A stretch of 64,000 nucleotides of DNA from Ectocarpus siliculosus (Eukaryota > Sar > Phaeophyceae > Ectocarpales > Ectocarpaceae), in contig FN649756.1 in the NCBI GenBank assembly GCA_000310025.1, positions 368,345 through 432,344 on the forward strand. The letters run 5' to 3'. The position numbers were made by a program, and so were the translations under genes. Below the pieces are notes generated by a model. The model worked only from the letters and a program-made list of their open reading frames with translations, was not told the DNA's origin and made no database searches. Positions 6,227-64,000 of the stretch are shown piece by piece; the stretch's first letter is position 1; every line of letters starts with the position of its first letter.

Positions 6227-9200
6227 TTCGGCGACGTTTGTTACACCCTTCAGAGAAGAGGATCGGACCCACGTGGCGGTAAAGATGTCAAGCCTGGAGA
6301 AAATGGCAACAGTTTCGCAAGAGAACGCCTTCAAAGAAATCTCCGTCATGGTCAGTGGGATTTCGCTTCGGCAGTGCAATTTTCTCATGCTGGCCGGTGT
6401 GCATGGGGCTATCGACGACGAGGCACGACTGACTGCTGTTTGTGCCGCCCATTCCGCTGGCGACTTTGGCGTCGGGGGGTTGGCCAAGTTGCACAAGTAG
6501 AGCAGAAGCAACCCGACTGTTGCCTTTGTCGTAAAGCTGACGGGGATATGTACATGGCGTCCGCGTTCCGAGCCAGCTCATTCAGCCACGGAGCTGCATG
6601 GTCAGCGTCGGGTCCCACGGCTATTGTAGGAATCGCCGCGGACCTTGCTTGTTATTGACTGTATTCTTAATTTTGTCCTTGCTCCTCATCTCAATCCAAC
6701 CGTTTCACCCTTCCCTTGCTGCGTCTATCTGTCTTCCGCCCGTGCGTTGTACCAACCACATTTCTTTTTTGCCGTCTGGCTGACGTTGCAGAGGCACTTG
6801 ATGCAAGCGGGTGAGCACCCGCACGTAATGCCGGTGATATCGGCGTGCATGTCAACGTGAGTCTCCCGCTGCCACTGGGCAAGCAGCAGCCCGCCTGGGT
6901 TGGGTGTGCCCCTCAATCCGATGCGATTGTTGTACCTAAGGGCCGGTTGACTTCTGTGTGGTGGCTTGGGGTCACCGGTAAGGCGCTTGTAGATGTGTTT
7001 GGAAAAAGTCGTCGCGCGATCTAGGCGTCTCCGGCTTTGATGCAATTCTTTGTTTTTCTATTTAGTTTCTTGGCCAACGTTAGACAGTATCTGGGACTCT
7101 GACGGAGTCGATTAGTCGGCCTCCTCCTGTACACACGCAAGCACAAGCACCACGATACGGCTCAACAGACGGTGGAAAATAAACACAACAGCGGTGCTGC
7201 TTTTTGGCGATAAAGATCGGCGCTGAGTTAAACTGACACACGATAGTGTTGCTCATCTCGCTTGGGTGGAGCCAAAATATGAAAATATGTGCAGCAATCG
7301 CCGTGATACGTGGGAGCCCGCTTCTGCCAATCTTGTCTCTGGTTTTTCGATCCCATTCCCTTCCACGGGATTGAGCGATCATTTTTCTCCGACGGCCGTA
7401 GGAAGAGCCTTCGTTTGCATTGCAGGCGGTACGGTCCGGTACTTCGACATGAACGCCATGTCTGAGGTTTTTAGTCCGTCGCCAACGTAGCTGCTGCTCA
7501 AGTTTGGGCTACGTAGTGCAAGGTGGTCGATCCGATCTTCGCGGACACGGGTGAGGTGCATTGCCTCTTTGCTGTCTGTCTACACGTCTTCCGAATGAGC
7601 AGTCTGTGCCACCAGTGTTTCGTTTTCTAACGCATCACGGCCCCTCGTTGATGCACGTGCCTCCTTACGACACACCCACCTGCGATTCTAAGCTGCCGTT
7701 CTGCGGCCCCCCCCTTCTCCCCAGGACGCACTTGTTCGTGGTTACCCCCTTCTACATGGGGGGCGACTTGCTGTCACGGGTAGAACTGCACGGAACGGGC
7801 GAGGGCAACGCAAGAAGATGGTTCCGGCAGATACTTCTGGGGTTGGCGTACATACACCAGCAGGTGAGGACGACCACGAAGGACCAGTTCCAGGGGAAGG
7901 TGTGGGCGCGATGGCGGTGTTCATTCCTGGGGGTAGGCTTGGGCCCATTTTGCTGTATTTTTTCTTATCACATGCTTCCGTTTTCCGGCAAGCATGTACG
8001 TCGTCTTTGATTTTTTGGCCAATTGATTGAATGCTCTTTGAGGCGATCTACGCTCGGAAGTATGGTTTGAATCTGTGCTTCTGCTTGGTGCATCCTAGCA
8101 TTGGCGAGTTATGCTTGGGCTCTGTGGTGCTTTTGTTGCTACAGCGCAAGTGCAACACATCGGAGGAAATTCCTGAAAGTTTCCAATGGTTGATACCTCT
8201 ACCTGTTACAGCGGAGAGAAAGACGGTGCCGTAACGGGTGGTACTGGAACGGAAGGGTCTCGTCGAGATGAGATTACATTTTCAAACGCGTGTCGTTCGG
8301 CGGTAGCGTTAGCGCTGTCTTGGTTCCGGAAATGGCGGGCTTGAAAATTCGATCGATAGCAATTGGGTGTATGTTCTTGGTCTTGCTTGGTTGATTTTGT
8401 GCGGAAAAGTACCCACGAGTAGCATACCAGCATTTTTTTTTCTGAGGACGGTCGTCGTCGATCTTGAGTCTCAGAAGCAGATCCCGAAAGAGACGGAGGC
8501 CTCGCCCAATTCGATCGCGGCGTGTGAGGTGTGCCCACCAAGCCGGCCGGAGCATTCTACGCAAAATATGCTATTAGTAGGCTTCTGGTACGGCTTGTGA
8601 GAGGAGGTCAATTTTGTTTTTGGCCGGGGTCGTGCGGCTGATGAGCTGCGCGTTGGACGTAGGCCTGCTGGCGCGATGTGAATCGTGACAAGGCCCCCTT
8701 TTCCCGCGTGGGAGATGCTTATACCGTTTTTTCTTTCACAGCAAACTTCCCTTTCAACGCAGCGCGGAATACACCCGGTTTTTTTAAGACTTTGAATTGT
8801 TGGTGAATAGGACCCCGCTTGGAATCGTCACGCCTGCTTCTACGGCAGGTCATGCTGTACGGATTTACAGGACTAACCTTCTACAACCGCCTTTGCTCGG
8901 CACGTGCTCTTTATAGAAAGCGAACGGTATTTGCCTTTTTTTTTTTCTTCTGTTTTTATCGCTTCTCTCGATGTTTTTCGTCCTTCATCCGTCAGGGGCT
9001 CTGCCACCACGACGTGAGCCCTGAGAACGTTGTGATCACCAACAACGGGGAGGCGGCGGTGGTAATGGACTTCGGCATGGTGCAGCGACTGCAGACGGGT
9101 CCTAACGGACAGGTGGTGCCAATGCGCGACCAGCATGTGTTTGGGAAGATGAGGCAAGGTTTTAGGTTGGGCTTGAAAAACTGTTGCGTTCTCGTGTCTG

Positions 9201-10505
9201 CTGTTGCGGTTATTGCAGCTTTGTGTTCCACGAAGTATGTTCGTGTTACGCCGGTCGATTCACCCTCCAACTTGACCGGGAAAATCTCGTACCAGGAGCG
9301 CGCTACAACCACAACGCAGCTAAAGTGTGCTGCACGGAAACGGCCGGTGCCGATATCGGAAGAAGAGTCGATTGCTGCTCTTGCTATCACAACTGGTCCC
9401 TTTTTCCTCACCTGCTTACTCGCCACCATCCTGTTTCGTACTTAGTCACGAATGTGCCCACAAGAGTGCTCGATCGATAGCATCTCAGCTGACCGCGCAC
9501 GTATGTGCTTTATCGGGGATGGAATCTGCAGATACATGGCACCGGAGATCTGGGAGAACCGAGAGTACGACGGGCGGAGCGCAGACATCTGGTCCGTGGC
9601 GGTTTCGCTGCTGGTGTGCCTTGTCGGGGAGGAACAGTGGAAGGCACCCACCCGCGTACCGTTGGGGGATCGAGGGATCTATACGTACGTGTTGGTGACG
9701 TCTTTGTTGATGATTCAAGTTGCCATAGGTACCCGTCGGCGGCGGTTTTGTTGAGTGATTCATGTTACCATAGGTACGTGTTCGCGACGCCGCAAAGCTA
9801 CAGGTACGTGTTGGCGACCCTTTCTTTGAATTATGCATATTATTGCTGCTTTTGCTTGTTGTCGGTAGCAAGGTGGGCCGCCGCGATTTCCCTGCGTGTA
9901 TCGTCGCCGGCTCTTGTCCCTACTACTTCCAAACCATTTTCCTTCCGTATAATGGTGGCGTCTACGAGACTCGAATACTCTTAAGACCCCAATTTTTTTT
10001 TCTTTGGAATTATAGTTTCCCCCAAGTGCTATCTTCCATCACGGGTCATCGGGTATACTTGACGAGACCCCTAATGGCCTTCTTCTGCACGAAAGAAAAA
10101 CATGTGTGTAGTTCAGCGGAAGTGGCTCACTCCCGCGCCCGGTACCTTGGGCTAAGCAGTCGCAAGTGCTGAGTTGGATCAGGCTCTTGAGAGATGACGA
10201 ACTTGTGGGCAAACCACTTCAAAGATGCAGCAGCAGCAGCCGCAGCAGCTGTCACATCCACAACATCACCAACAAAGACTGGTTTCCCTCGCCACTTTGC
10301 ACAATTTTACAGTTCAGACATCTACGGCTACACGATCTTGGAGCAGCACGGGGCAGGAGTGATGCTGGAGAGGTGCAACTACGTGCCGAGAATGTCTCCG
10401 GCTGCGGCGGATGTCTTGCGCTACATGCTGATAGTCGACCGTGATGTTCGTCCGACCTCGGCGATACTCCTCGCGCAGCACCCCTTTTTCTCGGCGCAGA
10501 CGTAA
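6227..10505 (+). CDS. Serine/threonine protein kinase, six exons, 5' end missing
   Basis: Exons 6227-6350, 6792-6856, 7725-7863, 8996-9153, 9532-9684 and 10313-10505 join with matching phases into 276 residues plus TAA. The kinase elements appear in order. VAVK has its ATP-binding lysine at 6282-6284. A helix-C glutamate lies in AFKEISVM. HPHVMPVI precedes VVTPFYMGGDLL (hinge). The catalytic loop is HHDVSPEN (Asp at 9011-9013), DFG is at 9068-9076, YMAPEIW has APE at 9539-9547, and SADIWS, RDVRPTS and a final HPFF follow. The glycine loop is not in these exons, so at least one 5' exon is missing. All essential acidic residues are present, but HRD is HHD and the usual catalytic-loop lysine is serine. 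Serine at that place is something I recall from stramenopile kinases. Intron 4 begins with GC (AG|GCAAGG), which the exon phase requires. The substrate is unknown. Confidence 0.9.
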
Positions 10506-13017
10506 ATGACCCCTTACTTCTACTGTAGCCATTACGGGGGCTGCGTAGAGTCGATGGCCGGTGTGATTCTTGGAGAACGGGAGCACAAACGGCGAATAAA
10601 ATATTGGTGTTTTTTTTTCTTCTTTTTCTTTTTTTCGCTGTCTTGTTGCGTATGTTAACAAGGTGTGGTCCGGTCCGCACACGGTGTGGATATTCTTTGC
10701 TCTTTGCTCTTTGCTGTCTTTTTAAGGCGCTACGTGCTTGCGTCTCCTCTGAAATTTTGTTGCGGTTAGGTGTCGCCTTGTCTAGACATTTGGGATGGCT
10801 TGCATGTGGATTACGGAAAACCCTGTGGGTTATCGCTTCGTTTAAGACATTTGCAGAGGTATGCGTGTTTGTGGCCAGGATTCATGGAAGCCTGCTGCTA
10901 CTGCAGTTGACTGCTGATGCTGCTGTCGTCACTACTTGCGTGCAGCAATGGTGTTTGGAAGAACGTGCAAGCATGCCACACGTGATTGGCGTGCGTGCTG
11001 ACAGGTTGATGTGGTAATTTTGATTGGATTATGGGATAGCAGGTAATGCCGCTACTGCTGGTTTGGTGTGGTTCGATATCAGCTTTTCTCTTGGCAGAAG
11101 TTTAGGCGCCGGTTTGTTGCACGAAAGGAGGCTTGAAACAGAAACGCCGTGCTTGATCATTGTCGTAGTTCTCAGTGCGATCCGCCCACAAATATTATCT
11201 CTGTTGTACTTTTTGGTGCCTTTGCGGGTCGTGGTGGTGGTGTGGTGACCCTCCTGGTATTTGCTTTTTTGTTGTTTTTTTCCCCACACGTGTGTCCGAC
11301 CAAGATTCCTCGACGATGGACGCGATCGATCAGATTGAGCGCTCTCCGGCGTAGGAAGGTGTCTTGTGTTAGTATGATTTACTGCCGTGTGTGTTGCACG
11401 TTATTTCCCGGGTGTAGAGTACCGCTTTTTGTATCAACATCTGGGTCATTAAAGAGGAGTCCTTGGTTGTCATGTCAACTTGTGTTATAGTCTCGGGACC
11501 GGTCTGCATTCTCTGCTGGCTGCGAAGTTGAAAACCAGCGAGAAACGTGACCCTGGGGAGCGGATGAGGGGTCAAAGTGGATATTTGAAAATTTACCGCT
11601 TGCGCATGGATCCGCCTTGCGATGTTGTTTTCGTTGTTGAGATGGGCCCTGCTTCATCTCCTGTTGCCTGCTGGGGTTCGATCTAAACAAAGAATAAAGT
11701 CGGTTGGGATGGGTGTCAATTAATGAGGTGGACCCGTGTGTGACGCGCCGCTCTTTCGGCACACAGTGATGAACAATAGTGGCCAGGCAAAGAGTTTTGT
11801 TTTTTGTGGATTGAACCACGGGTGACTTTAACGAAGGGGCTGGCGTTCTCTTTTGCTTACTGCCTTCTCGGCAAATATTCTTGGATCGCGTAGTTTAAGG
11901 GTCAATCCCAGCTCTTGGACCCTCCTAGGCCTGGCTCGGCTCCTCCTTTCTCGCCTTGTCTGTATAGGGTACACAATTTCATGTAGATTCTACACAGAGC
12001 AGGATCTACGCGCTGAACACTGTTTAGATGGATAATCGGGACAGCCCGCAGAGATATGGCCAGCCTCGCGACCATGGCACGCCGCTAAGCGGACACCTAC
12101 CTACCGCAGTAGGCGGACCCTTTGTTTGTGTGTTGACCGGGGCGGTAAGAACGGCCGCTTCTATAGGCGGTGCTTTTGCTTCAGGCGTAAGCCTCAATGA
12201 GTTGTAAAGAGTAGGACGGCGTATTGCTATATTGTCTGCTGTCGCTTCGTACGAACGCCAACGAGAGGAACGTGGGCAGTCGCCGAAAAGTTGATAATGT
12301 TTACGCGAAATGTGGGCATGGTTGCTGTTACTGGATACCGAGAGGGTGAGCTAACGCCGTGCGGCTGCAAGCTCCCACTCTCTCGGTGTCGTGTTGATGG
12401 ACAGAGTACGGGTAGCCAGCGATCAATACTCTACACCTGCTTGGTGTGAGAGTCTTCGTGCTCGTGCTCGGCGAGGGTTATTGCGAGGCGGCGCAACCTT
12501 GAGCTTTGGATAACCTTGACAGGTTCGAGGCGAAAACTGCTGGGCGACAAGCAGCTCTTAATCTGGCCGTATCTCATTCATTGTCCGGACGTGCGTAGTT
12601 GATCGGTCTCACTCAGGGTCTTGGACATATGCGAGCCCGCAGACCCACCTGGCCTCTAACACAAGGGTCGATTCATAGGGTGCCCGCAACGGATGGATCC
12701 GACAAAAGTGGCCTAAACCTTGGCAAGCACGCTCCACCTTGATTGGCAAATACGCCCTAAACAACAACACAAGAATCAAAAGTTTTCACTCAGTATTGTC
12801 AATGTTTGGCTCAACGTGAGGCTCCTGCTAGCGCGAGGATGCTCGGTGATCTACGGCAGCTTTGAAACACCTGGATCAGCCTGTACTTGTGTCAGGGTAG
12901 TGCTCTGCCTGTAACGCCCTGTGCTAGCCGAACACTTCATGGCGGGGCGCGGATGGATTGAAAGTGTTTTTTTTTCTCTACCCCCTCTTCCTACGGGGCT
13001 TGTACATTTTCGTACTT
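10506..13017. other. No gene seen downstream of the kinase
   Basis: This stretch probably includes the kinase 3' untranslated region. It has several T-rich tracts (near 10610, 11265, 12967) and no recognisable exon. A 137-codon frame at 10604-11017 starts in a T-tract and reads as Leu/Phe-rich low complexity, so it is not called. Confidence 0.5.
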
Positions 13018-13502
13018 TTTCATGAAAAGTTTCATGGAAGTCCATGGACTTCCATGGACTTCCATGGACTTCCATGATCTTTCATGAAACATTTCATGGA
13101 ATTCCATGGAAGTCCATGGAACTCCATGAAACTTTTCACGGCATTCCGTGAAAAGTTCCATGGATGTCCATGACATTTTTGTCATGAAACTTTCCATGAA
13201 ATAATTTCACTCCTTGTCATGAAACATTTCATGGAATAATTTCATGGACGTTCATGACATGCTTTCATGAACGTTCATGACATGTTTCATGAACGCCCAT
13301 GAACGTTCATGAAAACAAATGTCATGATAGCCCATGAACGTCCATGGAATGTTTCATGGACGTCCATGGTCTTTCATGAAATATTTCATGAACATCCATG
13401 AACGTTCATGAAAAGTTTCATGGACGTTCATGGGCTTTCATGAAAAGTTTCATGAAAGCCCATGGACATCCATGAAATGTTTCATGAACGAACGCCCATG
13501 GA
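13018..13502. repeat. CATG-module palindromic array 1
   Basis: This is about 485 bp in which CATG recurs mostly every 10 to 12 bases. Two kinds of module dominate, TCCATGGA and TTTCATGAAA, joined by a variable two-base spacer (AG, CT, CA, CG, AT). Every module is its own reverse complement, so the array has no strand. The left part is regular; the right part holds more variants such as TTCATGAACG and CGCCCATG. Open frames through it read as Met/His/Trp/Ser-rich repeats on both strands and are artefacts of the repeat. Confidence 0.9.
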
Positions 13503-14270
13503 ATAATTGCTGCTTCTAGCACTGCACGAAAGGGAACACAGTCTCGCAAATCTACTCGTAGCGTTCGTCTTCTTACGTTTGACTTGACCAATAGGCTACA
13601 CGGTCGACTGGCGGGCTAGAGGCTGCTCCTCGATTCTCGTGGGGGTATGCATGATAACATTGCGAAGACGACCCTGTATTGTACGGCGTGTCTGCCATCT
13701 CTCTGCGATCTCCACAGCTACTCAGCGCCAGCGATAATGCAAACCATGCGAGGGCGGGACGCTGAAGCGTCGACGCGTCGGCGGAAAACCCGAGGATACA
13801 TGGGGATATGTCCCCGCCCCCCCCCAAAATTGAACAAAATTACCCCGATTTTCGATTATGTAGAGTACAGTAGGCCTACCTAACTAACTGAGTGTCTTTA
13901 ATTTGTGTTCACGACACTACGGCTTCGAAACGCACCTCACCTACCTCACTCGGCAATGGCTAGGTACCGGTTGGAAGCGTTTTTCCCTTTCGCAATCCTC
14001 CACCCCTCCATTATCCGACGGTTCGCCAGATCGGGTCTGGCTGTGATGGGACACCCATTCATTGCTGAACGCGACGAGCTGGCGGTGGAGGCCGTCGGCG
14101 AGGTTGTTGTGCCCGACCGTTTGGCTTCTTCTCCCGCGGCTCTGCTGATGGGCGGAGGATGGTGTCCACCACTAACTTTTCTTTCGGCTTGGAGCAGATG
14201 CACCTTGAGCCCGCCGTGTGATTCATCTCAATTATTATAATGGTAGTTATTTTTTATTTATTTTTATATT
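13503..14270. other. Unique spacer between the two CATG arrays
   Basis: This segment is non-repetitive. It contains a C-run at 13815-13825 and a 111-codon frame at 13905-14240 (+) with no recognisable motif. It ends in a TATTTATTT-type AT-rich stretch. It may be the core of a mobile unit flanked by the arrays, or ordinary sequence. Confidence 0.4.
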
Positions 14271-14843
14271 TTTCATGGAAGTCCATGGAGCTCCATGGAA
14301 ATTTTCATGAAACTCCTTGGACGTTCATGAAACATTTCATGGCATTTCATGGAACTCCTTGGACTTCCATGAAATATTTCATGAAGAGTTCCATGGACGT
14401 CCATGGACTTCCATGGAGCTCCATGGGCGTCCATGAAAAGTTTCATGGAAGTCCAACGAAGCCCATACGCATTTCATGGAGACCAATGTCCAACACTGCC
14501 GAGGCTCATTGGCGGCATTTATCAACCAAGTTGGCGTCACTGGAATATTTCTTGAACGTCCATGAAATGTTTCATAGACTTCCATGATGAAATATTTCAT
14601 GGACTTCCATGGACTTCCATCGACATGGTGTCATGGACTTCCATGGACTTCCATGAAACTTTCCATTTTTCCATGAACTTCCATGGACTTCCATGGACTT
14701 CCATGAAACATTTCATGGAAGTCCACGGAAGTCCATGGAATTCCATGAAATATTTCATGGAAGTCCATGGAAGTCAATGGACTGGTTTCATGGAAGACCA
14801 TGGACGTCCATGGACTTCCATGGACTTCCATGAAATATTTCAC
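14271..14843. repeat. CATG-module palindromic array 2
   Basis: About 570 bp of the same TCCATGGA and TTTCATGAAA modules as array 1, interrupted near 14450-14550 by about 100 bp of unrelated or decayed sequence. CATG spacing is typically 10 where GA is followed by TC, and 12 where AAA is followed by TTT. Regular runs of TCCATGGACT occur near 14600-14720 and 14810-14830. Confidence 0.9.
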
Positions 14844-15552
14844 CAAAAAATACTGTAATGTAGATGACTGCCTTCCTACCCGGTCTTCGGCTTCATTCCT
14901 GCAATTCATGTTGATTAGCATACCCCTTTTCACGGGTAGGCACCCCTATTACGACATCGCTCCCAGTAGACGATTACACCAGCGTGGTAGACTTTGCGAG
15001 TCGGCCCCCGCTTTGCGTACGAGGCGGGGGGGGGGAGGAGCCCGACCGACTACTACTACATACCTTCCAAACCTGTGGTGGGTGCAGTGTGTCCGTGGGC
15101 TGCCGCACCCTGGTTGTAGACTATAGTTTTCGAAGGAAACGGACTCACTCGCACATCACTCACTGGATCGTTAGGCTCCTATTGGCGTAGAAACGACTAG
15201 CCTGCAGACCAAGCAATGCACTGGAGTTGGAAGATTCATTATGTTTGCTCTTGATCTAAGAATGTTTCTAGGCTTGTGAAGTCCTTCGAAGTATGAAGCT
15301 GGGCGGTGTTGTCAGTAATCTTTTCGCTGGATGCGACCGTCACGGTTCCGTCACGTGTCCTACAAATTCTTCGAATCTTGTTCCGTGTTGTTGTGTTGTT
15401 GCAAGTGCGATATAAATACATGTCTTCATGTTTCGTCGCCGTTGGCACCAAGTACGTCCCAAAGCTGATAAAGCGACCTTAGGAAATGATGCAGCAGTGA
15501 AACATTACTGAAAGAAATCTTCTGGAAACCCTCTACTCTTTTTTCTTTATTT
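14844..15552. other. No gene seen
   Basis: Apart from a G-run at 15026-15034, nothing recognisable was found. Confidence 0.5.
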
Positions 15553-15843
15553 CTTCACTTCAAATCAGCGCTCACAGCACTAGTGCCGTTTACTCCAACC
15601 CGTGGTCACACAGAAGAGCCCTTCTCCACCCTCCCCTCCTACTTTGCCTTCGATTTTTAATGCGAGAAGAGTTCAGCACTCTCTTCCCTCTGTGCACACA
15701 CGAACGAGCGCTATCCACTAGACCAGGAGCGGAAGCGAGAGAAAAACTCACTTTGCAAGAAAAGCTCGCTTACGCCGGGATTCGAACCCCTGACCTGACC
15801 TCTAGAAGGTTTCGCGGATACCAACTAGACCACCAGGGCGACC
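15553..15843 (-). mobile_element. tRNA-derived SINE, copy 1
   Basis: Read on the minus strand, the element begins GGTCGCCCTGGTGGTCTAG. It has a box A-like TGGTCTAGTTGG, then a perfect RNA polymerase III box B (GGTTCGAATCC, on the + strand at about 15778-15788). A second box A-like TGGTCTAGTGGATAGC follows downstream, so the head looks like two tRNA-like units. The body ends near TTTGAAGTGAAG and an A-rich tail (AAATAAAGAAAAAAG in minus orientation). A second copy at 45543-45843 shares its whole length with small indels, which rules out a single-copy tRNA gene. The acceptor stem does not close properly. Confidence 0.85.
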
Positions 15844-17348
15844 GGTGTATGCTACTCCACGGTAACAAAGACGAGCGAGCGTACAGTGGTACCAAATAGT
15901 ATTTTGTTTCTTTTTTCTGCTGGATTCACCGTTAATTCTTCGGCGAAATGAATATAATGGTCATCCAGTATCAAGCTGTTGGTTTTGCGCTCGAACGTAC
16001 CGCCAGTTCTTACCCCAGCTTTCAGGTACTCACACCGATGCGCGTCTTGTAACCACACTCGCACTACTGTAGTGTTATATTCGATGCACTTTACGCGGTT
16101 CGTAGAATGCTCTAAACGATTCTCCACACCACAGAGTGAAATTCCCACCAGATCCGCTGTCACCTCTCGGGTCGACCATCGATTTCATTCAATTTTCGCA
16201 AACCTGACACTTCATGACGTCGTCCCCTGCTGCCGGCATTTCACCCAAGTCTTTTCGGCGGGTGAAACTGTCGTGACTCTTCCCACATAACAGCTGGCCG
16301 GGTGCCTGACTCTCGCCGAGTCTCGAAACGTTTTCGTCACTACTGGGTTACTTGTTTCAAGAACGTGTTGGCCATACGGAGTGAAGTTGGTTTCTAGTTT
16401 TCGGGCTAAAAACGTCTCCTACCAGGTCGCAACCACGCGATCATCTGCACAACCTTTCCAGTACTGCTCGTTTTCTTTGACGATCACACGTTTCCTCAGT
16501 CAATCGACATCACTGTCCTTTGAGAAACGAGAATGGTGTCGCTCCCACAGCACGTTTTCCTCGTGCAGACGAGGAAAGCAGGAGGGAGATAGCAGGACGT
16601 GAAACGAGAAAAGAAACGGAATGAAAGTGATGGAGAAGCCAGAATCAGGAACATAAGCCTGTGTCCGATGTAAGGCAATTGCTGTCCCTATTCCTCCCAT
16701 CACACCAGTTCCAGGTTTGGCGTATTGCTTGATGCTATTAACATTTCTGGGGTTCCTATGCATACAGAGTACAATTGACACACGGTCGATTGTCTTATAA
16801 TGTGTGCGAGAGCCTGACAGGCGAGAATCCGGCACCGAACACCCCGGGATAGTTTGTAGGGATGTGGGGGGAACGTCTTGGGGGTCGAGTGAAGCGGAGA
16901 AGTGATACCTGTGTCTTGATGTTCGAGCTCCTTACTCATTTGCAGGTAATTGGGGGGCATGGTCTGTGAAACTCCTGCGGTGAATTTCACTCCAGGGACA
17001 AGGATTGTTTTGTTACTTATCCTCGCTTGTCGAGTGGGGGGTGATGGGCTATGTGCATCGAGTACCCCTACTGATCTCCTTTTGTCCAGCATATCACTTG
17101 CTGCTAAGAATGTTTCTTTACGTAATTAATCTTTCGAAACAAGTCTGAAATCTTGGATGCACCCAGCATTTTTCGCGCACACAATAAACCCCGGGAAGTG
17201 TTCAGAAATCGTAAAACCAGCCCCTTTCCATGGCATCCGAAACACCGCGCGCATACACTACTCTCTATACCAGAGTTGTGAGCAGCACACGCCAGTGTGT
17301 GTGTCTTTTCGGTTCTGGAGCTTCAACATGCACCGACCAAGCATCACG
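15844..17348. other. No confirmed gene
   Basis: A minus-strand frame ending at 15852 and open to about 16163 has ordinary-looking composition (for example VKCIEYNTTVVRVWLQ) but no family match I know and no supporting splice sites. Nothing else was found. Confidence 0.4.
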
Positions 17349-19996
17349 TCATGGGTTGACCGCCATCGTCACCCAAGTAATAGGAGATTGTGGTACCCCG
17401 TCCGTCCCACCACGAGCACCTTTCATTGCTGCTGCCGCAGTTACGCCTGCCAGAATCGCTCCTCCCCCGTCCCTGTCTCCCGTGATCTTATGAATGCTCC
17501 GCGACTGCCCGTCGACCAGTCGCAGATGGTCCACGAAGCTCGGCCACAGCAGCACCAGGCAAAACTCGTCTGAGACCGAACTTCTTGACGCGTCCCCTTC
17601 GCTCACACTCGCCTCCTCTTCGCCCCCTCTTCGATGCGTCTGGCTTCCCTCCTGCGTCGTTCCTGTAGCTCCAGCATCGTCCGAGTGATCGGTTTGCGGC
17701 TCCGGCGGGACCTCTAGTCCCGGTATCAAGGAAGTCTCGAAGGAAGCTTGCGAGGCCGGGCTAATCTGGGTCCATTGGTGTCGCCGCGCCTTGGCCAGGG
17801 CCTCGTCGCTCTCTCCCGCATCGACCACCTGGAGCCTCCCCTTGACCCGAAACTGCTCCCGGGTTTTCTTCAGGCAAAAGCATACCTCCCCGGCTGTGGC
17901 AGAGGGTGGGGGGTTTGGTTAAACATCGGCAGCCAAGTCCTATCAGATCTATGAATACGTTGCCATCGTCGTACCTCCGCAACACTCGACACGAATGACT
18001 TTTGCAAACTGGCACCGAGACGAGTGGCCTTTGCAAGCGGGTCCGCCAAAATACCTGGCTAATGGAACTACCCACCTTCTACGGCTCATGATACCGTATC
18101 ATTGTTTCATCAGTGCATACTTACGGTGCCAAAAAATCATGATAGGAGGGCGCGCAAGACTATTGCTGCGGGGGTCCAACGGCATCGGAGGGAAAAACGA
18201 TCGATACAGCATTTGTCACATGCTCTAAAGAGCGTGTGCAGATTGGTGCCAACGGTGGTCTGTGCCTGCAACCTCGGTTGGGCCGGGAAGTTTGGCACAC
18301 GAGAGCACACAACTTGGTCTTGTTTCGCAGCGACTTCACAACTCCGAAAAGTGAATAATACAAAATCTTTGAGGCGACAAAAAAAAACCGGTCGAGGTTT
18401 CGCACCTATGCAAGGGAGTAGGCTTCATCTATGGCCGGTTTTCAGCTGCACCGATGCAACCTAGTACAACCCCCCCCCCCCCCCCCCTCCCCCCTTTTTT
18501 TTCTTCTTTCCTTCTTCCCCCCCTNNNNNNNNNNNNNNNNNNNNNNNNNNNNNNNNNNNNNNNNNNNNNNNNNNNNNNNNNNNNNNNNNNNNNNNNNNNN
18601 NNNNNNNNNNNNNNNNNNNNNNNNGGTAAAACCCCCCCCCCCCCCGGCTTAGGCCCCCCCCCCCGGTGTTTGCCATCGGGGTTGGGTTTTCGTCGCTTGG
18701 CAACGACGTTGTAAAACAAGCCGCCCCCCCCCGTGTTTGCCATCGGGATTGGGTTTTCGTCGCTTGGCAACGACGTTGTAAAACAAGCCAATTCACTTCG
18801 TGAACTCGGCAACCAGGTTGCCGTTTTTTTTTTACCTCTGTTTTTTTTTTTGGCGGTAACCATGAATGGTGGTCGAGTAGATCATGTTGTGCGGGGTGGA
18901 GAAACCTCACTCCGCGCAAGGGGGATGATCGCACCACGTTGTGTTAAATTGGTCAAGCATCCTCGAGGCAGTTACACAGTGCTTATAACTGTCTCTGGAA
19001 GTGAAAGCACCAGAAAATAAATTAAGTCATACGCAGCTGTCATCCGTACGCAAGGAAGTAAGCACAAGATGCCGAACACCCTTAGCAGGATGCAGCTCAC
19101 CCTTCATGCGACTCGCCGAATACCTCACGGTGCTTCGCGCTTGGTGATGTGAGAGCCTGGTCCGGTGAGAACCCGGCATGCTCCGTCCCGGCTTTGTAGG
19201 GATGCGAGGTCAATGGTCTAACGGCTACGGCATGCACGACTATGAGTACCCCCTCCCCCCCCCGCCTACACAGCAGTGCTTGCTCACCGGGATCAGCGGC
19301 AATCTCGGGGACCTTTTGGCTCCTTCTATCAGTGACAAACTTGAGGGCACCCTTGTCTTCGTAGAACCCTCGGAACACCCAGGTTCTGCAGGAAGCCCCG
19401 CCGCCGATCGCCGCCGTTGCGAGCTGGCAGTACTTGGCTGTTGGGTCGTTCTTGTGCCGTGCAATACTGGAAAAAAGGTGTGCGGATTGTGTACGCCCAA
19501 GCCGAGCATGAACGCTGGGAAGTAGCTGCCCGCTCGGTATGCCGCGATATTTTAAAAGAGACGTTGCAGGGTAGACTATGCATATGTGATGTACAGCAGT
19601 ACAGTAGAACCACGTCCAAAGGTATCTATAGTACATAGTAGTGGTACATGTGCTGCAGTCTACCGCCGTACCGTACACACACAGATAAACCCACAAATCA
19701 ACCGCACAAGGCACGACCTTGAGAGTCAATCTTGCGCCCACACAACCGTATCAACACTTGCCCGACGTTTCTGAGACTCGGTAATACATGCATGATCATG
19801 CATCTCTCTGACGCAGAAGACGTCGAGAAGATGCGTATTCGAGATTCGAGATTCGAGATGTAATGTGCTGTATGTAATTGTACAGCAGTAGTGTAGTACT
19901 CTCCACGATGCCGCCGTTGGAAAACGGCCCTCACCCTTGCTGTAGTGAAGCTTGCCATGTTGGTGTAGATGCTGTTCCGGTGGACGCTGCCGCCAT
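17349..19996 (-). CDS. Pyridoxamine 5'-phosphate oxidase-like FMN-binding protein (Alr4036-type)
   Basis: Three exons on the minus strand, 19996-19935, 19466-19288 and 17893-17349, join in phase to 261 residues plus stop. The start is the ATG at 19996-19994. The split-barrel flavin-binding fold is recognised from successive motifs: TWQASLQQG near residue 13, AKYCQLATA about 31-39, CRTWVFRGF 47-55, FVTDRRSQK 64-72 (FMN-phosphate contact region in the family), TREQFRVKGRLQVV 91-104, a Phe-Cys-Leu-Val and VDHLRL strand, and a terminal WVTMAVNP. Family members are usually about 190-260 residues. A Gly/Ala-rich insertion precedes the C-terminal Trp. Intron 1 is 468 bp; intron 2 (17894-19287) holds element X copy B and the assembly gap. 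Members bind FMN, but their true substrates are mostly unproven, so oxidation of pyridoxamine phosphate should not be assumed. It is divergent from the M20 gene. Confidence 0.92.
18469..19263 (-). mobile_element. Element X, copy B, inside an intron
   Basis: This copy lies in reverse orientation in intron 2 of the FMN-protein gene. Its G-run/GTACTCATAG end is at about 19245-19263, some 24 bp from the splice donor. Its tail has two of the roughly 67-bp units (near 18665-18725 and 18733-18790) and long C-runs. The far end runs into the 100-N gap, with another C-run and a pyrimidine tract at 18469-18524. The exact far boundary and any target duplication cannot be read because of the gap. Confidence 0.75.
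18525..18624. other. Assembly gap of 100 N
   Basis: There are exactly 100 N bases between C-rich homopolymer tracts. The round number suggests a default scaffold gap of unknown true size. It lies wholly inside an intron and does not affect the coding model. Confidence 0.95.
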
Positions 19997-25431: not shown

Positions 25432-26025
25432 GGTGTACTCATAGTCGTGCATGCCGTAGTCGTTAGACCATTGACCTCGCATCCCTACAAAGCCGGGACG
25501 GAGCACGCCGGGTTCTCACCGGACCAGGCTCTCACATCACCAAGCGCGAAGCGCCGTGAGGTATTTGGCGAGTCGCATGAAGGGTGAGCTGCATCCTTGC
25601 TAAGGGTGTTCGGCATCTTGTGCTTACTTCCTTGCGTACGGATGACAGCTGCGTATGACTTAATTTATTTTCTGGTGCTTTCACTTTCCAGAGACAGTTG
25701 TAAGCACTGTGTAACTGCCTCGAGGATGCTTGACCATTTTAGCACAACGTGGTGCGATCATCCCCCTTGCGCGGAGTGAGGGTTCTCGAGCCCGCACAAC
25801 ATGGTCTACTCGACCACCATTATGGTTACCGCCAAAAAAAAAAACGAGGTGAAAAAAAAAACGGCAACCTGGTTGCCGAGTTCACGAAGTGAATTGGCTT
25901 GTTTTACAACGTCGTTGCCAAGCGACGAAAACCCAACCCCGATGGCAAACACCGGGGGGGACGGCTTGTTTTACAACGTCGTTGCCAAGCGACGAAAACC
26001 CAAACCCCGATGGCAAACAAGGGGG
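25432..26025 (+). mobile_element. Element X, copy C (most complete copy)
   Basis: A 594-bp copy that starts GGTGTACTCATAG, as copy A does. It contains the shared body (CGGGACGGAGCACGCCGG, CAACCTGGTTGCCGAG) and two about 67-bp tail units (from about 25896 and 25962), each carrying the small inverted repeat GTCGTTGCCAAGCGAC and followed by a G-run. The flanks carry an 8-bp direct repeat GTCTAGGG at 25424-25431 and 26026-26033, a likely target-site duplication. No ORF of interest was found. Confidence 0.75.
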
Positions 26026-26065
26026 GTCTAGGGAGGGTGCCATCTCTCCGCGCTTTACGGTCACC

Positions 26066-39839: not shown

Positions 39840-41926
39840 ATGGCGAGGGAGAAGGACATGACGGAGAGGGAATATGGGCATCTATCGGAGAAGAATGATG
39901 CACCGGCAAGAGTAATGGCTGCCGGGAGAGCGTCTACCTGGGCTGCTGGTGGAGCTGGTCTCGGTACACAACGGGTGAGCATGATGAATGACGGAAACTG
40001 TGCGTTGAGCGGCTACAGCAGCAGTCGCATACCGCCCAAAATCCCAAAAGATTCGGCGAAGGCCGTGAACTGGCTGCGGAGATTGCGGATTTTCCTGGCT
40101 AGCGAGGGTTTGGAGCAGACGCTTGAAGACACCTATCCCACTGGCTATGTTCCTGTCATCAGCTGTTTGGACTGCATATATCTGAACCGGGTTCATGGTG
40201 CGGCGCTCGTTACGACACACAAGCGGGCGTGGGGATATCTGTTGGAAGCAACCTGCGGCACGGACATTGAAGAACGGTTGGCTGCTTGCGACTGCGTCCC
40301 TGAGGCGTGGAGGGTGATCCGCGAATGGGTTGTGCCTACTTTCGACGCCGAGAAGACATTGCTTGTGCGACGGTTGGAGGCAGTTGAGATGTCCCCTGGC
40401 GAGAACCCGAAGCTTTTCTTTGCCAGAGTTGATGGCATCATCAACATCATGCGAGCTGTCGGCATTGAAAAATCCGAGCGGGAAATCGTCCACATCATTG
40501 TTCGCCAGCTTTCGCCCGAGTACGATGTCGAACGCAAGTCTATCCTGGCCGACCCCGCCATTCCCCGAGCGAAAGTGGAAAAAGTTGTTCGCACGGCATA
40601 CGCTAACAACGTCGAGATCAAGGAATTGGGCAAATCGAAGGCGATCGGTGGTTTGGGGTGCGGTCATGGCGGCGTCGGTCAGAAGAGGAAACAACGGCGG
40701 CGGCAGCAGCAGCAGCAGCAACAACAGTGGGTTCATCCACAACCACCACCTGTACACCACCCACCTCCTAATTTCCCGACGTGGAGATGGGGGGCTCTAT
40801 GACTGTGGGCGCAACGCCGTGTACCCGCAAGAGGAGTCAGCTCCGCCGCCAGGCGCTCCGATGGGTGCCGTTCATCAGTGCGTGAGGTGCGGGAGGCATG
40901 GACACTCACTCGGAGACTGCAATGCTTTGAAGGCCACTGCACTGCCTGCGGTGAGTATGGTCATCGGCGCCGCATGTGTTGCACAACCGGCCGCATGCAA
41001 CAGCACGTGCATGTCGGTGATGGAGAGGGTCTCAACGCGAGTGGCAACGACACTATGCCGTACCAGCAGCGGAAGCGACGACGCTGGAGGAGGCACAGGC
41101 ACAGGCATCAGCCGGAGTCGCTCCTCCCCTTTGCAGATGGAGCGGTGGCATGGGGCACAGCAGCTGCTGTGGGAGCGGCGACCGGTGGTGGTGGTTTCCC
41201 TCTACAGTGGCGGGGGGAACGGCCGCGGCGCAGGCACTCGCGGCTGGAGCGGCGGCATCGGAGGCAGCAACGGCGGCGAGAGCGGGGACCCCTGGCAACA
41301 GAGTCTTCCCCGCGGCGGCGGCAGGGGGAACGGCCGGGGAGCAGGCACTTGCTGTTGAAGCGACCGTATCAGTGGTGCCACCGGCGGCGGCACCGGCGAC
41401 GGATAAACTCGAAAGCATGAAAGAAGAGCTTGCTGACATACGGAGGCAATGGGGGCAATTGGCGGCCAAGAAACCGGCACTGCATGTGCCGCCGGGCCCA
41501 CCACTTGTGTCGTCAGCAGGCGTGGCTTCAGCAGCGGAAACAACGGTGGGGACGACGACAGGTATTGGTGTTTTCCCCGACTCGTCAATGGGGGGAACGA
41601 CCGGGACGCCGTCAACTGCAGGAACGGTGGCACTGGAGGTTTCGTCGACCTGCGGCCAGATACCCCCCGCCGTATCAACTGGGGGGGCGATCGCAGTGCC
41701 CACATCAGCAGCTCCACCGGCACCAGCAGCGCAAGAAGCGGAGGACGCATGCGATGAGGATGGCTGTTGGTTGGACAATGGCGACGAAGGCGGCAACAGC
41801 AACTGCGGCAGCGGCGACGGCAGCTTCGTGGCGTTGTCTGCGGGTGCGGGTGCGGGTGCGGGGCATCCCGGCGCCCATCCGACCGTGTACAATGGTATCG
41901 GCGTGGTGCGGGACGATGGGGGGTAA
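39840..41926 (+). pseudogene. gag of LTR element 2, copia-type, frame changes
   Basis: The ATG at 39840 opens 320 codons. The capsid-like part has AVNWLRRLRIFLASEGLEQTL, HKRAWGYLLEATCG, and the copia-gag pattern LLVRRLEAVEMSPGENPKLFF...VDGIINIM...IVRQLSPEYD. After a glutamine run coded by CAG repeats (40700-40728) the frame changes. The first zinc knuckle CVRCGRHGHSLGDC (about 40879-40920) is in one frame and the second, CTACGEYGHRRRMC (about 40943-40984), in another. An Ala/Thr/Val-rich tail with a short helix (KLESMKEELADIRRQWGQLA) ends at TAA about 41926 in a third frame. Several frame changes in an otherwise young element suggest decay or error-prone assembly at the CAG repeat. Confidence 0.75.
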
Positions 41927-42397
41927 TGCCAGGGCTGGACATTCGATCGAGGCTGGAAGGGTGCGGCATGAATTGAGAGGCTACGTGTTCGGGAGCTACC
42001 GTGCGAGATGACTGGTGGTTGCACCATGAGTCTACGCGCGATTCAGGCACGTTCGTGAGAATTATGTTTATTTGGCTTTCTATTTTCTGGGTCGATTTTG
42101 TTTGTTGAAAGCCATGAATTTGAGAACTGCGTCGACGTAGGCTGTTGTGTTGCGATGCGCACGAACGAACGTGGTGTTTATGGTCTGTGGTACATGTGTT
42201 TTTCATTTGTCAAGGATATGGTTTGCATAGTCTAGGACTTCACCGCGCCGAATGGTGCAGTTCATGTTGTTGGGTCACTGCTAGCACTGCTGTCGAAAAT
42301 CATGGGGGGGGATGAATGTGATGCTGAGATGCCATGATCTTCGCCGCAGTACAAGCAGAGTTCTAGCGGACGTTCGGGTTTGATTGTTCATTCTGTT

Positions 42398-42543
42398 CAC
42401 GTTTTCCGCGTTTTACCTGCGGAAAATGAGGAGAAGTCCTCCATTGTTGTTTGTTTGCGATTCCGCGTTTCACGTTTTCCGCGTTTTACCTGCGGAAAAT
42501 GAGGAGAAGTCCTCCATTGTTGTTTGTTTGCGATTCCGCGTTT
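42398..42543 (+). repeat. 73-bp tandem duplication inside element 2
   Basis: Two near-identical 73-bp units starting CACGTTTTCCGCGTTTTACC occupy 42398-42470 and 42471-42543. Decayed parts of the unit follow to about 42660 (CGATTCCGCGTTT phrases). Confidence 0.8.
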
Positions 42544-42702
42544 ACCTGCGGAGTTTGAGGCAACTTCATGATACTTGTCTGATTCCTCGTTGCTAGGATA
42601 AGAAATACATTTCTTGTTTATTCGCGATTCCGCGTTTTTCCCGCGGAGATCGGACGTAACTTCATGATATTCGTTTGATTTCTCGTTGTTTGGATCCGAG
42701 AG

Positions 42703-42850
42703 TTGTTGCAGCAGGGGGGCTGTTAGCGTTCGTGTTTTGGGAGATGATGCAGCAGGGGGGCTGTTAGCGTTTGTGTTTGGGGAGATGATGCAGCAGGGGG
42801 GCTGTTAAACGTTTATATTTTGGGAGATGATGCAGCAGGGGGGCTGTCAG
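42703..42850 (+). repeat. Four tandem units ending in polypurine-like GCAGGGGGGCTGTT
   Basis: Units of about 45 bp carry GATGATGCAGCAGGGGGGCTGTTAGCG-type phrases. The G6-C-TGTT core resembles the junction of the real polypurine tract and 3' LTR at 43475-43490 (AGGGGGGGC then TGTTTG). Confidence 0.8.
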
Positions 42851-43484
42851 CGTCCCTTGCACGAGCCTATGGTGCCAAAGACCCTGAAGTCCATGTCTGG
42901 ATGTTTGAGAAACGGCATAATTGGCGAAAGTTTCCTCTGGCGTCTTCGAACGCCGGGTTTTTAACGTTTGTCTATTTGTGCCGCATGTATTTGGTATTGA
43001 TGACTGTTCTGAACGATGTATTGGAGGAAGGATTTGACATATTTTGGTAAGACATGGTTGAGGCCTATGTGCTTCCGAAGCTTATTTGAAATTGGTCAAT
43101 GAGTTGAAACACAGTTTTGTGCGAGGATTTTGTTCGAGGTATTTGTTGACGCGTTTTGCCAGAATTGTCCGTCCAGAGTCTTTTTGACGTGGCTCTGATG
43201 TAATGTTGATCTTTGCTGAGTATTCTTCCAAGGATAATTCTTTGTGTTTGACTGCTTGAGAATGTGGCGACGACGTTTTCTCGAGAGGGGTGCTTGTTAA
43301 GACTCTTAGTGAAGTTCCATAGTCGTAGGAGGAGTAGTAACCTGAAACTTGAATATTCGATAGATCCGGGAGTTGAGATGATTTGTGGATACGAAAGATG
43401 AATGGTTTTTAGATTTGTTGCCGTTTTACCTGGCGATATGTACGGAGGATCTCGTAGATCGTATCTCGTTCCGAGTAGGGGGGC

Positions 43485-43730: not shown

Positions 43731-44816
43731 CGGGGGAGTAGTCAAGAGCACCCTGCACCAGGTAGTCAAGGTCCGTCTGCTGCAGGAACGACTTCTCGCC
43801 ACGAACAAGTCTCTAAGAGCCGAATAGTCTCTGCTAACATTGACCTCACCGGAGCCGCCGCCCTCAGCCCGCCCTCCGGATCACGGAGCGCTGCGACCTC
43901 GCCCGCTCCACCTGCCTCGCTTTCTGGGCCCTCACGTTCGGAGGTGGAGACCCGTCCGCCCGGCCAACCCCCGCCTGTGCCTGGTGCCCGTTCTTTTCAC
44001 CTTCGCCCGACACAAGCTCAGCCATTTGATGACACGCGTGAATACGCTTCGGACGACCTTCTCCTCTTCTGGAAACCTCTTTCCGTTTTCTCATAGTGGA
44101 CTCCATCGGCTTTCGACGTACTCGGGGTACGTTATTCATGTAGTGAGCAATCGATGATGTCTGAAAAAGCGAAGCTGTGTTAAGAGATATAGCATCGTAC
44201 GACCATATTATGGCTACGACTGATCCTGCGAAACACAAATCTTCAGGCCGTAAAGTGCGGCCGTTCGATCATGCTGAATGGGAGCGTCGTCGAGAAGAGA
44301 TTATGCTTCCTGGTCGTGTTTCAAATTTGCTCAGAACCAAGGCATGAAACAGCATCTGTTAGCAACGGGTACCCGTAGTCTTGCGGAAGCCAGCTCCTTC
44401 GACACTAATTGGGGTATAGGCCTGTCTGCTCGCCATCCAGATGTTCGTGACCCGTCCAAATGGCCGTTAAACGGGAAAAACCTGTTGGGAGAAGCATTGA
44501 TTGATGGAAGCTCGACGCCTCTTGCGAGATCGTCCGTTATCTGGCGAGGATTCCCCCGACTCTGCTTCCCCCGAGCCCCCCGTTTCGCAGCCTCTTCAAC
44601 CTGGTCAACGACGCATTCACGAGGTCGCCCCCGCTGGATGCCCGTCGGTTCCGGAGGATCGCAGCAACGACCCAGATTACCTTCGCTTGGACGCGCCGGG
44701 AGATCATGCTTCCGTCCGCGAAGGTCAATCTTCTTTTGTGGAACATCCTCGACACCATGTTCCTTTCGTTCGCATAGTCTTCTTCCCGCTACCCAAGGTA
44801 CCGAAAGCATTACATT
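43731..44816 (+). pseudogene. Decayed remainder of the older gag-like element
   Basis: After the second TGTCA the plus strand is again coding-like. There is a Ser/Pro/Ala-rich frame to 44096, then ATG 44210 (MATTDPAKHKSSGRKVRPFDH AEWERRREEIMLPG in two parts) ending at a stop near 44345, then further short frames to 44816. Several stops and frame changes are present. It is taken as the 3' continuation of the element seen at 33973-35642 and 38553-39264. This is inference from strand and composition. Confidence 0.4.
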
Positions 44817-45306
44817 ACCAGACATCTGTGATACTCCGATTCCCGCTTCCCGCATGCGTATTATCCGCGAAAATCCAGAACAATACGGGAATTCCCGTGT
44901 TTTGAGTTTGAAAGGGCCGGCGAGCTGTTCGTTTTGCCAGGCGGGATTCCCGTCGTCCTCCGTGCTTAAAGAGCCAATTCCCGCTATTTTTCATACATAT
45001 GAAAAAAGCACCATATAGTGAAAACACGCGGGAATTGATTCTTTACACCAAACCACACGCCAGAACGACGGGATTCCCGATTCCCGCCTCGAAAAAACGA
45101 ACAGCCCGCCACCGCTTTCAAAATCCTTCGCTGACGCTATGGATTCATTGCTAATCTATCTTAGACTTTTTTCTGTAGATAGAGATGGATTTATTGTGTC
45201 ATAGTAATAAAATATATAAAAAGGCGGGAATTCCCGCATATTTCTGGATTTTCACATGCTAACCCGCATGCGGGGAGCGGGAATCCGAGTTTGAAAGATG
45301 TCTGGT
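44817..45306. mobile_element. MITE with about 80-bp terminal inverted repeats
   Basis: The left end ACCAGACATCT, through CGATTCCCGCTTCCCGCATGCG, AAAATCCAGAA and GGGAATTCCCG, reads again in reverse complement at the right end (45225-45306). The unit is 490 bp, has no ORF, and is rich in GGGAATTCCCG palindromes. No clear target-site duplication is visible, so the superfamily is open. Confidence 0.7.
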
Positions 45307-63702: not shown

Positions 63703-64000
63703 CCCCCCCCAACCCCCGGACCCCCCCACCCCCGGACCCCCCCCCCCTCCCGGTGTTTTGCCATCGGGGTTGGGTTTTCGTCGCTTGGCAACGACGTTGT
63801 AAAGCAAGCCGCCCCCCCCGGTGTTTTGCCATCGGGATTGGGTTTTCGTCGCTTGGCAACGACGTTGTAAAACAAGCCAACTCACTTCGTGAACTCGGCA
63901 ACCAGGTTACCGGGTTTTTTTTTACCTCTGTTTTTTTTTGCGGTAACCATGAATGGTGGTCGAGTAGACCATGTTGTGAGGGCTCGAGAACCCTCACTCC
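63703..64000 (-). mobile_element. Element X, copy D, cut by the window end
   Basis: C-runs at 63703-63750 are followed by two of the roughly 67-bp tail units (GCCATCGGGGTTGGGTTTTC near 63760 and again near 63829) and then the conserved CTCGGCAACCAGGTTACC and CATGAATGGTGGTCGAGTAG phrases. The copy lies in the same orientation as copy B and continues beyond the window. Confidence 0.8.

What the first reader, a model, noticed from the sequence alone, without database searches (positions are those of the whole stretch)
13018..14843. Arrays built from two self-complementary CATG modules with matched inter-module pieces
Both arrays consist of CATG cores every 10 or 12 bases. Where the bases after one CATG are GA, those before the next are usually TC; where they are AAA, the next are usually TTT. 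So both the modules (TCCATGGA, TTTCATGAAA) and the pieces between them tend to be palindromic around a free two-base spacer. Variation appears to preserve the dyad symmetry. The 10-bp phase is close to one helical turn. This could be a phased protein-binding array, a cruciform or RNA-hairpin former, or the product of unusual palindromic amplification.
Basis: seen in the sequence. Interest (0 to 1): 0.7.

Follow-up and report, generated by a model that had tools for sequence, protein, structure and literature searches.

The report
Jumping gene with palindromic repeat ends
The two strange CATG-rich stretches are the repeat-filled ends of one small mobile DNA element, present in dozens of copies in this alga's genome, whose 10- and 12-base palindromic words may serve as landing sites for the enzyme that moves it.

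Summary
They are the subterminal arrays of one non-coding DNA transposon at window 12995-14870, with a 764-bp unique centre between them. Dispersed copies share its sharp ends: left end-pattern 41 matches, right 42, backwards controls 0. Of 19 two-ended copies, 10 have a perfect flush 8-bp target-site duplication and 14 match at 7 or more of 8 bases with at most one base of slip; mismatched flank pairs: 0 of 340. One insertion has a paralogous empty site with a single copy of the 8-mer. Arrays are strung from two words: CATG+GANNTC (10 bp) and CATG+AAANNTTT (12 bp). Symmetry is strong across the spacer and weak across the CATG core. Position-by-position compensatory change is weak. The 12-bp word recurs mainly every third unit, so cores average 10.6 bp apart. 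Neighbours are direct repeats, not inverted ones. The form matches foldback-like elements (Galileo, Tm1, Tetris). Transposase and superfamily remain unidentified. I think the arrays are multiple transposase or host-factor sites; this is inferred, not shown.

The parts
12995..14870 (+). Non-autonomous DNA transposon copy, 1876 bp
   Evidence: Similarity to other copies stops sharply at these ends; end patterns dispersed in the genome with 0 control matches.
12987..12994 (.). Left target-site duplication, CTTCCTAC
   Evidence: Equals 14872-14879, with a one-base slip on the right; 8-bp duplications flush and perfect at 10 of 19 copies, 14 of 19 allowing one base of slip and one mismatch.
14872..14879 (.). 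Right target-site duplication, CTTCCTAC
   Evidence: As above.
12995..13037 (+). Left imperfect terminal inverted repeat, 43 bp, starts GGGGCTTGTACATT
   Evidence: 30 of 43 positions match the right end reverse-complemented; 500 shuffles: mean 12.4, largest 23.
14828..14870 (-). Right imperfect terminal inverted repeat, 43 bp, reads CAGTCATCTACATT inward
   Evidence: As above.
13021..13500 (.). Left subterminal array, 43 CATG cores
   Evidence: its first CATG is at base 27 of the element (27 or 39 in all 19 two-ended copies).
14274..14832 (.). Right subterminal array, 38 CATG cores, with a degenerate stretch about 14479-14560
13507..14270 (+). Unique non-repetitive centre, no recognisable protein
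   Evidence: 10 places in the genome (this one included) match at least 745 of 764 bases at 92-100% (a lower bound); no Pfam match from the ORF 13905-14240.

Best explanation
The feature is one copy of a non-coding, foldback-like cut-and-paste DNA transposon family. An unidentified transposase moves it in trans and makes 8-bp target-site duplications. Each end has an imperfect ~43-bp inverted repeat, running into an array of about 0.1-0.75 kb of self-complementary CATG words spaced 10 or 12 bp. Shown: the ends, the dispersal, the duplications, a paralogous empty site, the constant place of the arrays, and an array-length difference between two records of one insertion. Inferred: the arrays act as many extra binding sites for the transposase or a host factor, about one helical turn apart and readable in either orientation. 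Also inferred: array length grows and shrinks by direct slippage or unequal exchange.
For: Sharp shared ends; 41 left and 42 right end matches against 0 in controls; target-site duplications in 14 of 19 copies against 0 of 340 mismatched pairs; paralogous empty site of the L018 insertion in L044 with a single CTTCGAAC. The left array begins at base 27 or 39 in all 19 two-ended copies. Most of these loci were fetched because their arrays matched, but five (L047, L048, L051, L052, L053) were chosen from the end-pattern lists, and all five have arrays at both ends. L051 and L053, one insertion with the same duplication CGAGCGTT, differ by 115 bp of left array, bounded by a 14-base direct repeat with one mismatch. 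Mean spacing 10.6 bp and phase kept. Precedent: footprinted and gel-shifted THAP-domain sites in Galileo ends (PMC3688188, abstract and passages).
Against: No transposase was found. Of 20 hAT-dimer and 45 MULE domain matches (six-frame, lower bounds) none lies inside a copy; the nearest are 10.3 kb (C3) and 14.5 kb (C115) from an end, both on the outer side. The KDZ and P-type searches rang nowhere, controls included, so they say nothing. Five of 19 copies (L009, L013, L020, L027, L035) show no duplication by the test; for L009 a looser search finds a shifted match with one mismatch. Substitution in CATG cores (5.6%) is no lower than in the centre (4.5%), so constraint on the cores is not shown. 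No binding data exist.
Confidence: 0.7

Rival explanations
1. The arrays are passive minisatellites inside a transposon: slippage-prone palindromic words that expanded by replication errors and have no role in movement.
For: Neighbouring pieces are direct copies; spacer identity is raised at lags 1, 6 and 8 units; a 115-bp array length difference exists between two records of one insertion; cores diverge no less than the centre.
Against: All 19 two-ended copies keep an array starting at base 27 or 39, including five picked by their ends alone. The third-unit order is kept in 12 of 17 copies at p < 0.05 although spacers 32 bp apart match less than chance (0.146 against 0.231); copies are related, so this is suggestive only.
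Confidence: 0.35
2. The arrays work as RNA or single-strand hairpins: transcripts fold back and feed small RNAs that silence the family, or strands form cruciforms.
For: Very strong predicted folding of each array as single-stranded DNA (z -23.4 and -21.7).
Against: Palindromic words fold by construction; little compensatory change within a word length; no Rfam family at gathering score in the window. No expression or small RNA data.
Confidence: 0.15
3. The arrays are heat-shock-element clusters that make the transposon stress-responsive: TTCATGAACGTTC is a run of alternating nGAAn units.
For: Three 3-unit runs (GAAnnTTCnnGAA or TTCnnGAAnnTTC) in the element and none in the other 62 kb of the window; 16 of 17 copies have 1 to 4.
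Against: Only a few runs among 81 cores; the commoner GA..TC words break the 5-bp phase. The motif definition is recalled, not from a call.
Confidence: 0.05
4. The arrays are unrelated satellites or chance repeats, not part of a mobile element.
For: The arrays alone look like minisatellites to Tandem Repeats Finder.
Against: Shared centre, ends and target-site duplications.
Confidence: 0.01

Closest known systems
Tm1, Mutator/Foldback family of root-knot nematodes (PMC3169594; passages read)
   Same: Composite inverted ends with variable numbers of a short (~14 bp) internal repeat, asymmetric terminal motifs, 8-10 bp duplications, MITE-like copies among its groups.
   Different: Tm1 duplications are mostly 9 bp and some members encode a putative transposase (Mutator, by the title); here they are 8 bp and no transposase was found. 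Words here are 10/12 bp and palindromic.
Galileo, P superfamily, Drosophila (PMC3688188, PMC3573991; passages read)
   Same: Long internally repetitive ends; tandem repeats expand and contract; many copies reduced to ends.
   Different: Galileo's tandem repeats are about 210 bp in D. mojavensis and the transposase is known; here the words are 10-12 bp.
Tetris, foldback element of Drosophila virilis (PMC4079207; passages read)
   Same: Non-autonomous, 8-10 bp duplications, tandem repeats inside the ends, transposase not found.
   Different: Its repeats are about 220 bp and also form satellite arrays.
Drosophila FB element (recalled; not read here)
   Same: Ends built of ~10-bp repeats grouped into ~31-bp units (recalled).
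   Different: Different sequence and 9-bp duplications (recalled).

Membership tests
Foldback-like DNA transposon (structural class) | Long inverted ends made of internal short tandem repeats | tested here: met
   43-bp imperfect inverted repeat (30 of 43 in this copy) plus subterminal arrays at both ends.
Foldback-like DNA transposon (structural class) | Ends able to fold back | tested here: met
   Each array folds with z -23.4 / -21.7; prediction only, and each array was folded on itself, not with the other.
Foldback-like DNA transposon (structural class) | Target-site duplication | tested here: met
   10 of 19 flush 8/8; 14 of 19 with slip or one mismatch; control 0 of 340.
hAT superfamily | 8-bp target-site duplication (usual for hAT: PMC12730594, passages) | tested here: met
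   shared with other superfamilies.
hAT superfamily | Both ends fit the hAT end consensus (A second, G fifth; recalled) | tested here: not met
   Ends begin GGGGC and CAGTC in this copy.
hAT superfamily | hAT transposase in an autonomous relative with the same ends | tested here: inconclusive
   20 hAT-dimer matches, none inside a copy; the two best loci, L049 (cut by the contig end) and L050, lack these ends and arrays.
Mutator-like (MULE) | About 9-bp target-site duplication (range 8-11 recalled) | tested here: inconclusive
   All ten flush perfect cases are 8 bp.
Mutator-like (MULE) | MULE transposase in an autonomous relative with the same ends | tested here: inconclusive
   45 matches, none inside a copy; the nearest is 14.5 kb from an end on contig C115, on the outer side.
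KDZ / Zisupton | 8-bp target-site duplication (PMC12730594, passages) | tested here: met
KDZ / Zisupton | KDZ transposase | tested here: inconclusive
   Search rang nowhere, controls included.
P superfamily (Galileo) | P-type transposase | tested here: inconclusive
   Search rang nowhere, controls included.

The most novel reading that the evidence does not exclude
The transposon ends carry a helically phased lattice of orientation-free palindromic sites. The 12-bp word is inserted about every third unit to correct the 10-bp repeat back to the DNA pitch (10+10+12 = 32 bp, three turns), so that dozens of transposase or host-protein dimers line up on one DNA face at both ends. The array would then be a mechanical docking filament, not a set of separate sites.
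Probability: 0.25. Interest if true: 0.6.

Novelty: new variant of a known kind. Interest (0 to 1): 0.38.

Why it matters
Why some DNA transposons carry long repetitive ends is unsettled. In the passages I read, Galileo is the case where sites in such repeats were shown to bind the transposase domain (PMC3688188). This family offers a natural series: same ends, variable arrays, and one insertion held in two records with different array lengths. That makes array length, phase and mobility directly comparable. It also explains a striking repeat that an annotator could take for a regulatory array.

Tried and rejected
Palindromic amplification: rejected, neighbours are direct copies. Selection on the CATG core: not shown. 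Differences are core 5.6%, inner 10.2%, outer 15.2%, spacer 21.1%, centre 4.5% over 12 copy pairs that passed the filter (the number of pairs tried was not printed; L035 and L047 were left out and copies with runs of N other than L053 were dropped). The high spacer rate can come from exchange between units or misalignment. The 32-bp period as a recent duplication unit: not supported, spacers three units apart match less than expected; six units (64 bp) match more. A long autonomous copy: the 5.4-kb C53 copy holds about 1.3 kb that lies outside the element in L010, so part of it is nested DNA; the 10.8-kb C211 copy has 9,851 N in its fetched stretch; ten ORFs, nine from the C53 and one from the C3 copy, had no Pfam match up to E 0.1. 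An empty site for the window copy itself: its left flank is unique. Viral contigs: 0 matches to one exact 25-base pattern. A 507-bp duplication in L018 lies beside a run of N and is probably an assembly artefact; five of the 19 copies (L013, L018, L025, L033, L053) hold runs of N, so their lengths are uncertain. Organism: no RuBisCO large subunit found; 87 light-harvesting matches, one reading matched solved fucoxanthin proteins.

Full report
Setting. The window is contig C31:368345-432344 of a 189.5-Mb genome in 492 contigs. The genome has 87 light-harvesting matches, and one reading matches solved fucoxanthin-binding proteins best (409 bits to a chain named FCP17). It is therefore a fucoxanthin alga; that it is a brown alga is my inference. 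No tRNA (ARAGORN, bacterial code) and no Rfam family at gathering score was found in the window.

Check of the observation. Left array: 43 CATG, right array: 38. Of 79 neighbour intervals 42 are 10 bp and 16 are 12 bp. Pieces of six bases are mostly GA-NN-TC and pieces of eight mostly AAA-NN-TTT. Pooled, the outer two bases are complementary across the spacer in 40 of 58 pieces, against 24.9 by shuffling. Across the CATG core they are so in 34 of 81, against 29.5 (p 0.15). In the loci held at that time (37 with qualifying arrays) the figures are 749 of 1208 against 487 +/- 16 across the spacer and 740 of 1901 against 665 +/- 19 across the core. So the main unit of symmetry is the piece between cores, and flanks on the two sides of a core assort almost freely. 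Within a length class, compensatory change is weak: outer-pair odds ratio 1.65 in 10-bp pieces and 0.53 in 12-bp pieces. An excess of fully matched 10-bp pieces does remain (506 of 848 against 404 +/- 10). Copies are related, so family counts are not independent.

What it is. A BLAST of window 10000-18000 against held loci showed that similarity runs through both arrays and the sequence between them and stops at 14870 in five loci. The left end is GGGGCTTGTACATTTTCGTAC at 12995. Genome-wide this left pattern has 41 matches with up to 2 mismatches and the right-end pattern 42 with up to 3; the backwards controls had 0. A joint inward pattern gives 85, control 0. The centre 13507-14270 matches 10 places (this one included) over at least 745 of 764 bases at 92-100%, and others in part (a lower bound).

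Mobility. Among held loci 19 copies have both ends within 5.6 kb. In 10 the eight bases before the left end equal those after the right end exactly; with one base of slip and one mismatch allowed it is 14. Mismatched left-right pairs gave 0 of 340 under either rule. Two of the ten, L051 and L053, are one insertion in two records. Five copies (L009, L013, L020, L027, L035) fail this test; L009 has a shifted match with one mismatch in a looser search. For L018 the joined flanks, with one copy of the 8-mer removed, align across the junction to L044, an unoccupied paralogous site (85.6% over 306 columns).

Anatomy. Ends are imperfect inverted repeats (30 of 43 in this copy; 500 shuffles mean 12.4, largest 23). 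In all 19 copies the first CATG array begins at base 27 or 39. Most of these loci were fetched because their arrays matched, which favours copies with arrays; the five chosen from end-pattern lists (L047, L048, L051, L052, L053) also have arrays at both ends. Most copies are 1.1-2.0 kb; a 781-bp copy contains N, and 2.65-kb and 5.4-kb copies also occur. The ORF in the centre, 13905-14240, gave no Pfam match.

How the array is ordered. Successive 12-bp steps are separated by exactly two 10-bp steps in 98 of the 150 gaps listed, against 25 expected. Singly, 12 of 17 copies reach p < 0.05, the window copy with 5 of 10 gaps against 1.6 (p 0.018); L010, L017, L020, L043 and L048 do not. Mean spacing over the 10- and 12-bp steps is 10.6 bp ((848 x 10 + 360 x 12)/1208). 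Phase coherence peaks at 10.6-10.7 bp per turn: 0.897 against 0.827 in 300 shuffles, largest 0.855. This fits helical phasing, but inherited 64-bp repeats also fit: spacers six units apart agree in 0.368 of 76 against 0.229, while three units apart only 0.146 of 137 against 0.231. Adjacent 10-bp pieces are identical in 37 of 234 (expected 16) and reverse-complementary in 13 (expected 19.5), so growth looks like direct duplication. L051 and L053 differ by 115 bp of array, bounded by a 14-base direct repeat with one mismatch; L053 also has a short run of N in its centre.

Function. Differences between copy pairs are 5.6% in cores, 21.1% in spacers and 4.5% in the centre (12 pairs). The core is not slower than the centre, so I cannot claim selection on it. 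The binding-site reading rests on precedent: Galileo's THAP domain binds sites in internal tandem repeats of its long ends (PMC3688188, abstract and passages), and multiple sites are called a convergent trait (PMC3573991, passages). I give it about one in two, given that the transposon identity itself is close to certain.

Family. Structure fits foldback-like elements. The superfamily is open: 8-bp duplications fit hAT and Zisupton/KDZ (PMC12730594, passages), and P and some Mutator-like elements (recalled; Tm1 shows 8-10). hAT and MULE domains exist in the genome, but none was found within a copy; nearest 10.3 and 14.5 kb, on the outer side. KDZ and P-type searches were silent in the controls too. 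In the Ectocarpus transposon survey KDZ is abundant (PMC12477816, passages); the word foldback does not occur in its main text.

Novelty in print. Three searches that paired transposon terms with algae or brown algae found 0, 52 and 16 papers and listed 0, 10 and 10. None of those listed describes CATG-word foldback elements in an alga, judged from titles and abstract starts. Four other searches on foldback ends and binding sites listed none either. This covers only the open-licence library.

The check changed wording and added.

Noticed in passing
window 18653-18789, 25896-26026, 63744-63878: A 67-68 bp unit with poly-C/G and GCCATCGGGATTGGGTTTTCGTCGCTTGGCAACGACGTTG (or a close variant) occurs three times, each time as a 2.0-copy dimer with 95% matches, in both orientations.
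   Followed up: no
window 39840-40802 (+): ORF with a weak copia-type gag match (E 4.8e-6, 26.6 bits against a cut-off of 27).
   Followed up: no
window 44278-45018 (+): ORF with a NADAR domain (E 1.7e-14); the Ectocarpus survey mentions NADAR domains of Gypsy elements (PMC12477816, passage).
   Followed up: no
window 8819-9445 (+) and one further ORF of 49 scanned: Weak ABC1-kinase match (E 3.3e-4) in the first ORF, and a pyridoxamine-phosphate-oxidase match (E 1.1e-10) in another member that the table does not name: likely exons of host genes.
   Followed up: no
window 42396-42853: Stack of tandem repeats: an exact 73-bp dimer, then 96-bp and 41-bp repeats.
   Followed up: no
L051 and L053 (contigs C349 and C30): The same insertion in two records, nearly identical but 115 bp different in the left array: probably two haplotypes; good material to study array turnover.
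   Followed up: partly
window 12995-14870: Three heat-shock-element-like 3-unit runs in the element, none in the rest of the window.
   Followed up: partly
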